Positions 1 to 7,610 of a stretch of DNA of 7,844 nt are shown here, piece by piece. How positions within the stretch are numbered: position 1 is the first letter of the stretch; every line of letters starts with the position of its first letter. The notes beneath the pieces were generated by a model. It was not told the origin of the DNA, did not search any database, and worked only from the letters and a program-made list of their open reading frames with translations. The DNA lies in assembly GCA_003132645.1 (NCBI GenBank), contig PKYM01000033.1:163-8006 (forward strand). The letters run 5' to 3'. Source of the stretch: Actinomycetota bacterium (GTDB lineage Bacteria; Actinomycetota; Thermoleophilia; UBA2241). A program made the translations under genes and the position numbers.

Positions 1-26
1 CAATTGGCCAAGATCTTGGCCAATTG
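1..26. promoter_or_regulatory. Perfect 26-bp palindrome, probable antitoxin operator
   Basis: The two 13-base arms (left arm CAATTGGCCAAGA) are exact reverse complements with no spacer. The site contains two copies of the self-complementary octamer TTGGCCAA separated by GATC. It ends four bases before a strong AAGGAGG ribosome-binding site. In type II toxin-antitoxin loci, palindromes at this position usually bind the antitoxin or the toxin-antitoxin complex for autoregulation. The palindrome is seen directly; the operator role is inferred. It begins at the window edge, so it may be longer than what is visible. Confidence 0.6.
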
Positions 27-29
27 TTC

Positions 30-36
30 AAGGAGG
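30..36 (+). promoter_or_regulatory. Strong Shine-Dalgarno site without a canonical start codon at normal spacing
   Basis: AAGGAGG is a near-perfect anti-16S match. Six bases downstream, in frame with the antitoxin, the codon is GTA (43-45), not GTG or ATG. The first in-frame ATG is at 70, which is 33 bases after the site and too far for normal initiation. A start at 43 would give a ribbon-helix-helix protein of normal N-terminal length. This suggests either a mutated GTG start or non-canonical initiation. Confidence 0.55.
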
Positions 37-69
37 CGCGAAGTAGACCCGCTCGTCCACATCCATTTC

Positions 70-288
70 ATGATCATGCGCAGTCAGAAGGCCCGGCTCC
101 GCGAGCTGTCGGCTCGCGACGATCTGTCGATGGCGAGCTTCGTCCGCGAGGCCATCGACCTCTATCTGCGGGTCGCCGCCGGGCCGGCGGCGAACCAGTT
201 GCGCAATCAAATGCTCGAGTCCGTGGGATCGCTGCCCGTCCTCGCCGACGGCGAGGTCGACGGCGCCGAGCCGCGGGGGTACTGGTGA
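70..288 (+). CDS. VapB-like ribbon-helix-helix antitoxin, start uncertain
   Basis: This is a small protein of about 72 residues from ATG 70, or about 82 if translation begins near 43. The visible core is an N-terminal strand (VHIHF, encoded from about 55), a first helix (SQKARLRELSARD) and a second helix (MASFVREAIDLYL). This is the strand-helix-helix order of RHH antitoxins, which dimerise through the strand and bind operator DNA. The C-terminal half is acidic and ends in YW, as expected for a tail that wraps a PIN toxin. The stop at 286-288 is directly followed by the toxin start at 290, as in vapBC operons. The ATG at 70 has no ribosome-binding site and would drop the DNA-binding strand, whereas a strong site sits upstream before a GTA codon. 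The gene may therefore be damaged. The family call is moderately sure; the start is not. Confidence 0.55.
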   Translation: MIMRSQKARLRELSARDDLSMASFVREAIDLYLRVAAGPAANQLRNQMLESVGSLPVLADGEVDGAEPRGYW

Positions 289-289
289 G

Positions 290-652
290 ATGAGCCCCGC
301 AGCGGCGTTCATCGACGCGGCTCGACTCGTCGCCCTGCTCGACCGCGACGAGCCCGAGCATGGAATCACCGAGAACCTGCTGCGGATCGAACTCAACGCT
401 GGGGCCGCCCTTGTGACATCAAACTACGACGTCGTGAAGGCTTCGCTTGAACTGCAGCGGCGGTACGGGATCGAGGGGCCGCGCCTGCTCCTGCACGGGC
501 TCGTGCCCTGTCTGCACGTCGAATGGTGCACGCGTCGCGACCATCTCGCGGCAGTCGAGGCCCATCTCGCCGACGCGAGCGGCACCAAGGACCTGGTCGA
601 CTGCGTCGCGGGCGAGATCGTGCGCCGGGTCGGAGTCACTCCGATGTTCTGA
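290..652 (+). CDS. PIN-domain (VapC-like) toxin, possibly inactive
   Basis: This protein of 120 residues starts at ATG 290, one base after the antitoxin stop, so the two are likely translationally coupled. VapC toxins are Mg-dependent ribonucleases with a carboxylate cluster of about four acidic residues. The first is visible as Asp9 in FIDAARLVALLD, and another as Asp104 in DLVDC. The segment LVTSNYDVVKASLELQRR matches the family helix where a glutamate is usual, but Lys50 stands there. The chain ends in GVTPMF, where homologues continue with a phrase like F-D-R-H-F containing the last acidic residue. The TGA stop falls at about that Asp position, and the next codons read Gly-His. The catalytic site thus looks incomplete, suggesting a decayed or altered toxin. 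The PIN call rests on motif resemblance only. Confidence 0.6.
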   Translation: MSPAAAFIDAARLVALLDRDEPEHGITENLLRIELNAGAALVTSNYDVVKASLELQRRYGIEGPRLLLHGLVPCLHVEWCTRRDHLAAVEAHLADASGTKDLVDCVAGEIVRRVGVTPMF

Positions 653-3978: not shown

Positions 3979-4620
3979 TCATGCCGTTGCCGCCTGTGCG
4001 GCGAGTGCTTTTGCCCTATCGACCGCCATGCCGGCGTTGGCCCCGTAGCCGTCGGCGCCGAGCTCGTCGGCGAAGGCCTGCGTGACGGGCGCCCCGCCGA
4101 CCATCACCTTGACCTGCTCCCTGAGTCCGGCCGCTTTGAGGGCGGCCAGCGTCTCCGCCATGTGGGGCAGGGTAGTGGTGAGCAGGGCGCTCATGCCGAC
4201 GATCGCCGGCGCGTGCTCCTTGACCGCCTCGACGAACTGCTGCGTCGTGACGCCGGTGCCGAGGTTGACGACCTCGAAGCCGGCGCCCTGCAGGAGCATG
4301 CCGACCAGATTCTTGCCGATGTCGTGCAGGTCGCCTTCGACCGTGCCCAGCACGACCGTGCCCAGGCCGGCGCCCTCGCCCTCGCCGAGATGCGGCTTGA
4401 GGATGTCGAGGGCGCCCTGCATGGTGCGTGCGCTGAGCAGCACCTCGGGAATGAAGCACTCGCCGGAGCGCATGCGCGCGCCGACCACCTCCATGCCGGG
4501 CAGCAGGGCGTCGTCTAAGATCTCGCGGGCCGGCGTGCCGGCGGCCAGCAGCGCCTGGGTGAGGGCGTTCACCAGGTCGGCGTTGCCGGCGATCAGGGCC
4601 TGCGTGAGTTGCTCCTTCAT
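3979..4620 (-). CDS. mttC: Methylamine corrinoid protein (MttC/MtbC type)
   Basis: This is a 213-residue cobalamin-binding methyl carrier. Residues 1-85 form the helical cap domain, with the typical stretch SGECFIPEVLLSA near 52-64. Residues from about 88 form the Rossmann-like B12 domain. The DxHxxG signature is present as D97-L-H99-D-I-G102, where His99 is the expected lower cobalt ligand. The downstream family marks MSALLTTT (143-150) and GGAPVT (175-180) line the nucleotide tail pocket. The protein accepts methyl groups from the methyltransferases of the operon and presents methyl-Co(III) to a second methyltransferase that is not in the window. It is the only corrinoid protein here, although three methyltransferases surround it, so it may be shared. 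The ATG at 4620 is preceded by AAGGGG at normal spacing. MttC is chosen because it follows mttB; MtbC cannot be excluded. Confidence 0.9.
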   Translation of the reverse strand: MKEQLTQALIAGNADLVNALTQALLAAGTPAREILDDALLPGMEVVGARMRSGECFIPEVLLSARTMQGALDILKPHLGEGEGAGLGTVVLGTVEGDLHDIGKNLVGMLLQGAGFEVVNLGTGVTTQQFVEAVKEHAPAIVGMSALLTTTLPHMAETLAALKAAGLREQVKVMVGGAPVTQAFADELGADGYGANAGMAVDRAKALAAQAATA

Positions 4621-4698: not shown

Positions 4699-6168
4699 TC
4701 AGGCGACGCCGACGAGGCGGTCGGTCTCTTCGACGATGGCGTGGATGCGTTGTTTGACATCGTCGTCTAACTGCACCGGCTGGTAGTCGGCCAGCACCTC
4801 GCGGGCCTTGGCCAGACAGCGGGCGTGCAGGTCGGTGGCGCCGCGCTCCTCCCATTCCTCGCGCACCCGGCGGTCGAGGAACTCGGGCTGGGAGAGCTCG
4901 CGCATGTGGCGCAGGGTGGCGTCCAGCGAGAGGAAGTCGCCGAAGGCGCCCACCTGGGCGATGTCGTCGACAGCCAGCGTCTCGTCTGAGACCGCGATGC
5001 CGCCGACGCAGTGCTTGATCATGCGCGCGAACTCGTTGTCCATGACGAACTGCCCGCAATCAAAGGTGACGCCCGACTCGATCATCCCCGAACCGTAGAT
5101 CAGGTTGGCTCCTGCCAACGCTGCCATGATGCCGGTGAGGGTCTTCTCGTGGCCGACCTGCGCGTCACCGAGTTTGGAATCTGCCTACAACCCGGCGACG
5201 AAGCTCGGCAGCAGGTAGCGTCTGGCCATCTGGGCCACGGCGGCGCTGATCATGGCGAGCTCGGGCGAGCCCACGCAGGCAGCCGCGAGCTTTAAGTCCA
5301 TGGCCGTGGTCGAGCTTCCGTAGATGCAGGGCGTGCCGCGCTCGGTGAGCTGGGCCAGGGTGATGCCGGAAAGCACCTCGGCGTTGTGGGTGACCAGCGT
5401 GCCGGCCAGTGTGACCGGCGACGAACCGCCGGCCATCGCCATGCTGAGGATGTTGTTGGGGATGCGCCAGCGGGCCGTCTCGATGATCACCTCGGTGGCC
5501 TCGTGAGGCAGCTTGAGCGGACTCACCGGGCAGACGCCGTTGTAGACGATCGGCCGGCGGCGCAGCTCGTCCTCGCCGCCGACTATCTCGGCCGCCATGC
5601 GGAAGATGGCGCGGGTCTCGATGCGCGAGAGCGGGCCGATGCCGATCGGCTTGGTGGTGTTCAGGTACTGCGCCTCGGCATTGTGCACGGCGCAGGTCTC
5701 GGGCGGCACGTCCCTGGCGCCGACGGCGATCTCATGCGTGTCGATGTCGGACAGATAGTCGTTGAGGCGGGCGATGTCGGCGACGTCTGCCTTGGTCGAG
5801 TCGCGCAACTCGCCGGTGTACGGGTCGACCACCCTGATGCCCTCGCTGAAGTTGGTGAAGGCGACCCGGCCGGGTTCGAGCACGATGTCGTTCTTGGGAT
5901 CACGGCCGCAGAGCACGAACTTGCTCGGCGCCGAGCGCAGGGCGTCTTCGACCACGTGCGGCGGCAGGCAGACGATATGGCTCTCGCGGTCGACGTCGCA
6001 GCCGCCGTCGGCGAAGATGTCGAGCGCCTCGTCGGCCTCGACGAACACCCCGGTGCGCTCGAGCACCTCGAGGCTGGCGAGATGGATGTCGCTGAGCTCG
6101 GACTCGGTGAAGACGTTGAGGCTCAGGCCGCCGCTGCGCGGCCGCCCGGCGAACAGGTTGCGTTTCAC
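4699..6168 (-). CDS. mttB: Trimethylamine methyltransferase with in-frame UAG (pyrrolysine 328)
   Basis: The 489-residue product, reading one UAG as pyrrolysine, matches the usual MttB length of about 490-500. The enzyme is a TIM-barrel protein that transfers a methyl group from trimethylamine to a Co(I) corrinoid protein, releasing dimethylamine. The UAG (5187-5185) is codon 328. It sits in the family phrase GL-O-ADSKLGDAQVGHEKT, after which homology continues to the natural TGA stop. The first ATG after the UAG is at 5127, so a separate downstream gene would lose conserved residues. Upstream blocks include PVSPLKLPHEATE and AMAGGSSPVTLAGTLVTHNAE. The start is GTG at 6168, overlapping the mtbB stop as GTGA, with GGAGG seven bases before it inside mtbB. 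A 78-base gap follows before the corrinoid gene. Pyrrolysine is inferred from family and position; the UAG is seen directly. Confidence 0.95.
5185..5187 (-). other. In-frame UAG, predicted pyrrolysine codon 328 of MttB
   Basis: The codon is TAG on the minus strand with context GCC GGG TTG TAG GCA GAT. It coincides with the family's catalytic pyrrolysine (residue 334 in Methanosarcina barkeri MttB). The UAG is a clean substitution at one site, with no frame change on either side. Confidence 0.93.
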
Positions 6169-7610
6169 GCGGAGACCTCCGGTCGGGGACTCACGACGCC
6201 GGCGCCGACCGACCGCGCGGCGGCGCGGGGGGCGATGTGTTCGGTGAACTTCTGGACGGAGTTGATCGGCACGTCGAACACCTCGCTGATGTGGAACTTG
6301 GCTTCGATCGCGCCGGGTTCGCTGGGATAGGTCAGCTCCTGCACGGGGATCAGTCCCAGCCCGAACTCGCGGCGTACTTCGTGCATGATGAGCGGGTCGG
6401 AGAGGTCGGCCGTGCTTACGCCAAGCCGCCCGGCCACGTGTGCCTTTGCCTGCTCCAGACGCATCCCTCGGGTCATCTGCATGCGGGCCACCAGATCTCC
6501 AGCGGTTCGCATTCCACCCATGCCCGAGGCGAGCGCATGGCTGCAGGCCATGCCCAGCGGGTCACCGACACCCACCTACAACCCGTCGAGCCGCCCGACC
6601 TGGCGCATGGCGCGCGACACGCGGGCGACCGCGTCGACGGGCGGATACGGGGTCATGGGCACCCCGCCGACGCCCATGCCGACGTTCATGTGCACGGGGA
6701 TCTCGGCCTCGGCGACGCACGGCTTGACGATGGTCAGCGCGCGCGCCACGTTCCAGGCGACCGACTTCGTGGTGTTGACGTTGACGGCCGGCCCGAACAT
6801 GGTCACGCCGGCTTCGGCGGCGACCTTGACCAGGTCGCGCGGCCACATGCCGGCCAGGCGCCGGCCGTGGAACTCGAGCTGGCCGTGCATGCCGAGCACG
6901 AACTCGCTCGCCATGCCGAGCTCGATGCCGATGTCGGGATGTCGGCTCTTGATTTCCTCGACGGCCCGCAGGGCGGCGAGAAGGTCGGCGTCGCCGGCGG
7001 CGCCGGCGGTGTCGAAGTCGAGACCGTCGGCGCCGGCCTCGATCATGCCCTCGGCGACGAAGACCATGTCGCGGACGGCGTGCTCCATGGCCTCTTCCTG
7101 GGCCGCCCGGGCTTCGTCGATGCGGCCCAGCGGCATGAGCTCGGACCAGTTGGGCACGGGGCCGTCGGGCTGCGAGTAGCGGCCCAGGTCGGGCATCGCG
7201 CCATATTGCAGCGGCGCCACCAGATTGAGCTGCGCCGACTTCATGGTCTGGGTCTCGAATGAGAGGATGGTCTTGATCGCCTTGTAGGAGTAATCGATGT
7301 GGTAGAGCTCGATGATGTCGGCGCCGCGGTGGCTCTGGTAGCTGTAGAGCTCGTCGAGCCGCGTGCCCGAGTCGAGGTTGCCCGAGCCGTCGCACGACAG
7401 GATCAGCTCGTCGCCCACGTCGACGGCGCTGAACTTGGCATTCGAAGCGAAGATCTCGAGCAGCTGGTCGAGATCTTCGGGCGCGAGCGGCTCGGTCTTG
7501 GCCTTCTTGGCGCCCAGCGCCGTGGCCTCTTCGAGGTCGGCGCGGATCTCACTCGGCGTCATGCGGATGAGCGAACCGTCGCCCAGGCGCGTCATCACGC
7601 TGTGCTCCAT
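6165..7610 (-). CDS. mtbB: Dimethylamine methyltransferase with in-frame UAG (pyrrolysine 345)
   Basis: The product is 481 residues when the single UAG is read as pyrrolysine, close to the roughly 467 of archaeal MtbB. The enzyme demethylates dimethylamine to monomethylamine and methylates a corrinoid protein. Visible family blocks are ELYHIDYSYKAIK, PLQYGAMPDLGRY, GADGLDFDTAGAAGDAD, GIELGMASEFVLGMHG and MNVGMGVGGVPM. The phrase LDGL-O-VGVGDPLGM spans the UAG (6578-6576), then GMGGMRTAGDLVARMQ. The Pyl residue is 356 in M. barkeri. The start is ATG 7610 with AGGAGG five bases upstream; the TTG at 7667 has no such site and adds a non-homologous Arg-rich stretch. A C-terminal tail of about 25 residues after TEHIAP looks like an addition and overlaps the mttB ribosome-binding site. 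It is the first gene of the operon. Confidence 0.94.
6176..6180 (-). promoter_or_regulatory. Internal ribosome-binding site for mttB
   Basis: GGAGG lies seven bases before the GTG at 6168, within the last codons of mtbB. It decides the mttB start and shows that mttB can initiate on its own besides coupling through the GTGA overlap. Initiation here cannot supply the protein after the mttB UAG without amber decoding. Confidence 0.8.
6576..6578 (-). other. In-frame UAG, predicted pyrrolysine codon 345 of MtbB
   Basis: The codon is TAG with context GAC GGG TTG TAG GTG GGT. It falls exactly between the conserved D-G-(L/I) and VGVGDP segments that flank pyrrolysine in MtbB proteins. Family residues continue in the same frame for 136 further codons. 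Confidence 0.93.

What the first reader, a model, noticed from the sequence alone, without database searches (positions are those of the whole stretch)
6576..6578. Amber codon read as pyrrolysine in a bacterial-type mtbB
The frame from 7610 is interrupted by one UAG at codon 345, with MtbB family sequence continuous on both sides. Standard gene calling would give a truncated 344-residue protein plus a false 136-residue ORF. If the host is a high-GC bacterium, as its ribosome-binding sites suggest, this adds to the fairly small set of Pyl-using bacterial MtbB enzymes.
Basis: partly seen in the sequence, partly recalled or inferred. Interest (0 to 1): 0.75.

Follow-up and report, generated by a model that had tools for sequence, protein, structure and literature searches.

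The report
Pyrrolysine codon with conserved RNA signals

Summary
Confirmed and extended. The frame 7610-6165 (-) is a full-length MtbB interrupted only by UAG at codon 345 (6576-6578). All 48 related mtbB copies that cover the site carry UAG there. The assembly holds pylSn, pylSc, pylB, pylC, pylD and a tRNA-Pyl(CUA), seven UAG-bearing mtbB copies and two UAG-bearing mttB genes, one next door in the window. Relatives are Thermoleophilia; Pyl-type mtbB/mttB in Actinobacteriota is already in print (PMC10805028).
Less expected: UAG also ends about 31% of called genes here (89 of 287), yet the Pyl codons sit in a fixed RNA context. In 88 mtbB genes the leucine codon just before UAG is always UUR (85 of 85) and the glycine codon 26 codons later always GGA (87 of 87), inside a covarying hairpin. 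mttB has an analogous invariant hairpin whose codons non-Pyl homologues lack: the UUG-GCA pair is in 47 of 50 Pyl genes and 0 of 15 others with the same two amino acids. I read these as cis signals that favour pyrrolysine over termination; that function is inferred, not tested.

The parts
6165..7610 (-). mtbB, dimethylamine methyltransferase, 481 residues with UAG read as one residue
   Evidence: Pfam PF09505 555 bits, NCBIfam TIGR02368 420 bits
6576..6578 (-). in-frame UAG, codon 345, predicted pyrrolysine
   Evidence: TAG in 48 of 48 relatives
6579..6581 (-). UUG leucine codon directly 5' of the UAG; UUR in 85 of 85 leucine cases among 88 mtbB genes
6479..6578 (-). Rfam PYLIS_2 match (66.2 bits, gathering 36)
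6485..6508 (-). covarying hairpin 68-91 nt after the UAG, loop AGAU at 6495-6498; invariant GGA codon 371 at 6498-6500
4699..6168 (-). mttB, trimethylamine methyltransferase with UAG at codon 328; its GTG start overlaps the mtbB stop by 4 nt (6165-6168)
   Evidence: TIGR02369 697 bits, cut-off 525; codon 328 aligns with the non-standard residue X of 7xcl, named Pyl334 in PMC9842639
5185..5187 (-). in-frame UAG of mttB, codon 328, preceded by UUG (5188-5190)
5088..5187 (-). Rfam PYLIS_3 match (75.3 bits, gathering 38)
5104..5119 (-). mttB hairpin GUUGGC-AGGA-GCCAAC, 66-81 nt after the UAG
3979..4620 (-). cognate-type corrinoid protein (MtbC/MtgC-like)
   Evidence: B12-binding domains; below the NCBIfam cut-offs of MtbC, MtgC and TIGR02370
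2266..3882 (-). APC-type amino acid/amine permease, substrate unknown
   Evidence: PF13520 158 bits
779..2269 (-). MttB-superfamily protein without Pyl (serine AGC at the aligned site); its own stop codon is UAG (779-781)
   Evidence: TIGR02369 381 bits, under the 525 cut-off

Best explanation
The UAG at codon 345 is likely translated as pyrrolysine, which would give a full-length dimethylamine methyltransferase (MtbB), and the UUR codon fixed just before it together with a conserved hairpin 68-91 nt after it is predicted to favour pyrrolysine insertion over termination. Shown: conserved UAG, complete pyl gene set in the draft genome, near-invariant synonymous sites, covarying mtbB hairpin, absence of the mttB codon signature in non-Pyl homologues. 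Inferred: charging of tRNA-Pyl by PylSn+PylSc, decoding of UAG, and use of pyrrolysine to hold dimethylamine for methyl transfer to the corrinoid protein encoded downstream (established knowledge for the methanogen enzymes). Inferred and untested: that UUR and the hairpin raise the ratio of insertion to release-factor termination, which matters because UAG is also a common stop here. Because mttB starts inside the mtbB stop codon, pyrrolysine insertion in mtbB may also be needed for coupled translation of mttB (inference).
For: UAG in 48/48 relatives and one TAG in each of the 105 pieces in 20 genomes that reach the site, of 115. pyl genes and tRNA. PylSn in 19 of 21 MtbB-bearing genomes and 0 of 378 others in the class sample. 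In 88 mtbB genes UAG-1 is UUG 71, UUA 14, UAC 3 and never CUN, although UUR is 10.4% of 3226 other leucine codons; UAG+26 is GGA in 87 of 87 with a residue there, against 10.1% of 3670 other glycine codons. On a tree these two columns have 3 and 0 synonymous changes, median 22 over 110 columns. 33 of the 88 were fetched after the pattern was seen (all from the window's class, nucleotide identity to the nearest earlier gene 63-93%): GGA 33/33, UUR 31/31 leucines. Hairpin: 93.9% of cells paired, covariation 0.313 against 0.112 shuffled (0 of 500 reach it) and at most 0.113 when slid; the covarying pairs join third codon positions. mttB (53 genes): UAG+23 UUG 49, UAG+24 GCA 48. Non-Pyl MttB homologues in the loci scanned (61 genes): UUG 1 of 35 with leucine at +23, GCA 0 of 26 with alanine at +24; UUG-GCA together 0 of 15 against 47 of 50 Pyl genes with the same Leu-Ala. 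Own genome: 9 of 9 Pyl UAGs carry PYLIS_2 or PYLIS_3 above gathering; UUG precedes 7 of 9 Pyl UAGs and 1 of 89 stop UAGs. UAG ends 31% of genes (89 of 287), not depleted against non-Pyl class members, and back-up stops are not enriched after UAG (10 of 87 within 10 codons; UGA 28 of 159).
Against: No protein data. pylSc lies on another contig than pylSn/B/C/D/T, and the genome is a 370-contig draft. The 5' codon is not universal: 14 mtbB use UUA (13 of the 33 later ones, nearly all in the second family), three use UAC, and 34 of 53 mttB have Ala, Gly or Thr there. One of five covariation measures for the mtbB hairpin (number of pairs with a double change, 3) is reached by 232 of 500 shuffles, and folded alone its energy is unremarkable (z -1.4). 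The mttB hairpin is nearly invariant and shows no covariation beyond shuffles, and PYLIS_3 draws other pairs there. The hairpin is further from the UAG than a ribosome covers (recalled), so how it would act is open. By passages read, PYLIS is not essential in mtmB though it raises the full-length product (PMC2933860, PMC3639795), and a review says PYLIS is little conserved between species (PMC9499178).
Confidence: 0.75

Rival explanations
1. Pyrrolysine is inserted by plain amber suppression with no cis signal; the fixed nucleotides serve something else, such as mRNA stability or regulation of the operon.
For: Published work read in passages: a UAG introduced into uidA was translated at an apparent 20-30% in Methanosarcina, and PYLIS replacement in mtmB did not abolish insertion (PMC2933860). 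The hairpin lies 66-91 nt away.
Against: The two least-changing of 110 conserved columns of mtbB are UAG+26 and UAG-1; non-Pyl MttB homologues with the same residues lack the codons; UAG is a stop for about 31% of genes here.
Confidence: 0.3
2. The UAG is a real stop or a recent nonsense mutation; mtbB is a pseudogene or makes a truncated product.
For: Database entries end there.
Against: Same codon in every relative that covers the site, family match beyond it, pyl genes present.
Confidence: 0.02
3. The UAG is read through with a standard amino acid by near-cognate tRNA.
For: Not excluded by DNA.
Against: Complete pyl set with tRNA-Pyl(CUA); PylSn only in MtbB-bearing genomes of the class sample; the mttB UAG aligns with the Pyl position of 7xcl.
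Confidence: 0.03

Closest known systems
Methanosarcina barkeri MtbB (dimethylamine:corrinoid methyltransferase, Pfam PF09505)
   Same: same family over the full length, single conserved UAG (PMC2933860, passages), companion mttB and corrinoid gene
   Different: host is a high-GC bacterium with split PylRS; seven UAG-bearing mtbB copies in one draft genome; UAG stays a common stop
Pyl-type mttB/mtbB of Actinobacteriota MAGs from Stordalen Mire (PMC10805028)
   Same: same phylum, same genes, expression reported there
   Different: the word Thermoleophilia does not occur in its main text, and the passages read say nothing about codon context; one mtbB locus found here (L016) carries the isolate name palsa_647
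Rfam PYLIS_2 (mtbB) and PYLIS_3 (mttB), RF02509/RF02510
   Same: window matches both above gathering; the covarying mtbB hairpin is the second hairpin of PYLIS_2
   Different: the first PYLIS_2 hairpin is not predicted from 54 sequences; the mttB hairpin described here is not the pairing drawn in PYLIS_3; the UUR codon 5' of UAG is outside both models, which begin at the UAG
Sifarchaeia Pyl system (PMC9723677)
   Same: UAG-bearing MtbB with frequent UAG stops (21% there); authors leave open how the two are told apart
   Different: archaeon; about 31% UAG stops here, and a candidate answer in the mRNA context

Membership tests
MtbB (PF09505 / TIGR02368) | full-length family match above the equivalog cut-off | tested here: met
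   555 bits Pfam; 420 bits against cut-off 369
MtbB (PF09505 / TIGR02368) | single in-frame UAG at the family's conserved position | tested here: met
   TAG in 48 of 48 relatives covering codon 345
MtbB (PF09505 / TIGR02368) | demethylates dimethylamine onto a corrinoid protein | not testable with these tools
   needs an assay; a corrinoid gene lies two genes downstream
Pyl-MttB (TIGR02369) | above cut-off, with UAG at the Pyl position of the solved enzyme | tested here: met
   697 bits against 525; aligned with X of 7xcl
Pyrrolysine coding system | tRNA-Pyl(CUA), PylS, PylB, PylC, PylD in the genome | tested here: met
   on two contigs of the draft
Pyrrolysine coding system | Pyl residue present in the protein | not testable with these tools
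   mass spectrometry needed
PYLIS_2 / PYLIS_3 (Rfam) | match at or above the gathering score directly at the UAG | tested here: met
   66.2 (36) and 75.3 (38); the seven other own Pyl sites
PYLIS_2 / PYLIS_3 (Rfam) | base pairs supported by covariation | tested here: inconclusive
   mtbB second hairpin supported on four of five measures, first hairpin not predicted; the mttB hairpin named by me has no covariation beyond shuffles; the pairs drawn in PYLIS_3 were not counted
MttB superfamily without Pyl (third gene) | MTTB family match, no UAG at the Pyl position | tested here: met
   275 bits PF06253; AGC at the aligned site; substrate not assignable

The most novel reading that the evidence does not exclude
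Bacterial pyrrolysine insertion is mRNA-programmed: a two-part cis signal (UUR codon in the P site plus a hairpin with an AGAY or AGGN loop 66-91 nt downstream) marks sense UAGs, so that cells can keep UAG as a stop for a third of their genes. A trans-acting reader of the hairpin, in the way SelB reads SECIS, remains to be found.
Probability: 0.35. Interest if true: 0.88.

Novelty: new variant of a known kind. Interest (0 to 1): 0.66.

Why it matters
How Pyl-using cells with many UAG stops avoid reading pyrrolysine into other proteins is stated as unknown in print (PMC9723677, passage), and reviews hold that PYLIS is not needed and poorly conserved (PMC9499178, PMC2933860, passages). The synonymous-site record across Thermoleophilia, deltaproteobacterial, Desulfosporosinus-type and Spirochaete mtbB, with non-Pyl MttB homologues as a natural control, names exact nucleotides to mutate and makes the question directly testable. 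It also shows multi-copy, Pyl-dependent mtbB as a family-wide trait (MtbB in 15 of 15 held genomes of the window's family; PylSn in 14), with proteins that databases hold truncated (120 of 120 listed).

Tried and rejected
Global recoding of UAG: rejected, UAG ends 89 of 287 called genes (31%) after removing the nine Pyl sites and is not lower in Pyl-bearing (15-52% in six genomes) than in Pyl-free class members (23-52% in five); samples are 31-205 genes each by a home-made caller. Back-up stops as the safeguard: not supported. Further Pyl families: of 24 UAG-ended called genes in 467 kb with a coding-like in-frame continuation, nine were mtbB/mttB; I looked at all 15 others and took them, by eye and without a homology test, for same-frame neighbouring genes or non-coding continuations. 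A TGA-interrupted MttB (C265) is a normal gene end. UAG-bearing mtmB in this genome: none found; two MtmB homologues have Tyr and Ile at the Pyl site, a kind already noted in Bilophila (PMC7593587) and in PMC2933860 (passages). One UAG mtmB exists in 15 family genomes (G044); it also has UUG before UAG, but PYLIS_1 scores 48, under its cut-off of 70. Long-range pairing of the UUG-UAG region: none predicted in -48..+140. Viral contigs and plasmids gave no MtbB relative, so archaeal genes were not tested for the UUR codon. No MtbB relative in PDB by sequence; the AlphaFold model (pLDDT 88) puts residue 345 on a strand (343-346), and the 50 Foldseek rows shown are other TIM barrels with TM by query about 0.2-0.35; MtmB and MttB are not among them. 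z-scores treat sequences as independent; the tree count was made for that reason. Rows dropped: tblastn rows under 150 bits, rows without TAG at the site (mttB; all mtbB rows seen had TAG) and identical rows; alignments hold 54 of 55 mtbB and 52 of 53 mttB for want of flank.

Full report
Observation. The frame from 7610 on the minus strand carries one UAG, codon 345 (6576-6578). Read through, it is a 481-residue MtbB by Pfam and NCBIfam. It is followed, with a 4-nt GTGA overlap (6165-6168), by mttB with its own UAG at codon 328 (5185-5187), which aligns with the non-standard residue of crystallised M. barkeri MttB (7xcl; named Pyl334 in PMC9842639, passages read). Then come a corrinoid protein, an APC-type permease and an MttB-superfamily gene with serine at the Pyl position.

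Pyl machinery. The window lies in contig 346 of a 3.24-Mb, 370-contig draft (88% complete). Contig 71 holds pylSn, pylB, pylC, pylD and a 73-nt tRNA-Pyl(CUA) with a cloverleaf and 5-nt D loop; contig 169 holds pylSc. The genome has seven mtbB genes or pieces with one UAG each plus a fragment ending before the site, two UAG-bearing mttB among 28 MTTB matches, and two MtmB homologues without UAG. In 399 genomes of the class, MtbB occurs in 21 and PylSn in 19, all of them within those 21; the two lacking PylSn are 84% and 76% complete. Named relatives of the closest mtbB type are Thermoleophilia or Actinomycetota MAGs. The mttB locus fetched from same-family genome G008 (L211) is an exact stretch of L013, a contig titled uncultured Thermoleophilia, which places the window's family.

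How UAG is otherwise used. With a codon-usage gene caller on 467 kb, UAG ended 98 of 296 called genes, nine of them the Pyl sites, i.e. 89 of 287 (31%). In five Pyl-free class members it was 23-52% and in six Pyl-bearing ones, own included, 15-52%. So UAG has kept its stop meaning, as PMC9723677 says of Pyl bacteria and Sifarchaeia, whose authors write that the means of telling the two apart is unknown (passages).

RNA context. I asked which synonymous positions of mtbB are frozen. In 55 genes (40 named loci plus own genome) the two most extreme of 139 columns were the leucine codon just before UAG (UUG 53 of 54) and a glycine codon 26 codons after (GGA 54 of 54). Both stayed the top two in 28 actinobacterial and 27 other genes taken apart, while four-fold-type third positions more than 35 codons from the UAG differ by 57% on average over 1471 pairs. 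A later set of 33 genes, all from the window's class, gave GGA 33 of 33 and, before UAG, UUG 18, UUA 13, UAC 2, no CUN. In total 88 genes: UAG-1 UUG 71, UUA 14, UAC 3; UAG+26 GGA in all 87 with a residue there; elsewhere in the same genes UUR is 10.4% of leucine and GGA 10.1% of glycine codons. By parsimony on a protein tree these columns have 3 and 0 synonymous changes against a median of 22. Around codon 371 RNAalifold finds one hairpin in the whole -48..+140 stretch, with covariation between third codon positions on both arms above shuffled and slid controls on four of five measures. It is the second hairpin of Rfam PYLIS_2, which the window matches.

mttB. The same analysis singled out UAG+23 (UUG) and UAG+24 (GCA) in 21 genes, and in 32 later ones 30 and 32 of 32. 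In 53 genes there are 49 UUG and 48 GCA. The four without UUG are two Desulfosporosinus-type genes (L036, L046) and two from the window's family (L212, L213); the five without GCA are L036, L041, L046, a Spirochaete (L038) and one gap. The block forms GUUGGC-AGGN-GCCAAC (92% of cells paired, no covariation because it hardly varies) and lies within the PYLIS_3 match, though PYLIS_3 draws other pairs. Control: among 61 non-Pyl MttB homologues in the scanned loci, UUG occurs in 1 of 35 with leucine at +23, GCA in 0 of 26 with alanine at +24, and both in 0 of 15 with Leu-Ala, against 47 of 50 Pyl genes. In one contig (L234) a Pyl gene with GCG UUG GCA sits beside a non-Pyl one with GCG CUC GCG for the same Ala-Leu-Ala. 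So the codons follow pyrrolysine, not the protein. When leucine precedes UAG in mttB it is UUG in 19 of 19, and in the one UAG mtmB of the family it is UUG too.

Reading. That this UAG encodes pyrrolysine is about as certain as sequence alone can make it. That the UUR codon and the hairpin raise insertion over termination is inference from constraint; published experiments, read here only in passages, found PYLIS helpful but not essential. A further inference: coupled translation across the GTGA overlap would tie mttB output to pyrrolysine insertion in mtbB.

Prior art. Pyl-type mttB and mtbB expressed by Actinobacteriota MAGs are in print (PMC10805028, passages). A search for pyrrolysine with Thermoleophilia gave one paper, on serpentine soils, which I did not read. 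In the ten searches made and the passages read I saw no report of the 5' UUR codon or of Pyl-linked synonymous constraint; most subscription papers are not in that library. PMC3639795 predicted a consensus structure for the mtbB region and cites a study in which synonymous changes in a PYLIS sequence lowered the yield, so the idea of a cis effect is not new. New here, as far as seen, are the 5' codon, the breadth of invariance, the covariation and the non-Pyl control.

Noticed in passing
own genome C97:13888-13981 (L086): tRNA-Sec (72.8 bits, gathering 47; ARAGORN also calls SeC, anticodon tca): a candidate for dual Sec and Pyl coding. L048, a named Thermoleophilia locus with mtbB, also has tRNA-Sec.
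   Followed up: partly
L075:6294-7661 (-) and L074:4611-5993 (+) (own C25, C42): Two MtmB homologues without UAG; Tyr and Ile align with Pyl202 of 1l2q. The first lies directly after a corrinoid protein gene that ends in UAG.
   Followed up: partly
own genome, 28 PF06253 matches: Large expansion of MttB-superfamily genes without an in-frame UAG (26 of 28 matches, fragments included), suggesting wide use of quaternary amines.
   Followed up: no
window 4-652 (+): Two small adjacent ORFs that look like an antitoxin-toxin pair (ribbon-helix-helix-like, then PIN-like, by eye); no Pfam hit.
   Followed up: no
L008:4078-5535 and 9983-12295 (own C71): A B12-binding radical SAM gene sits beside tRNA-Pyl, and a ferredoxin-like gene and an aldehyde ferredoxin oxidoreductase homologue lie near pylB.
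   Followed up: no
L078:1801-1806 (-) (own C147), L191, L192: Three mtbB genes have UAC (Tyr) instead of Leu(UUR) before the UAG: the only departures among 88, still with U at -3.
   Followed up: no
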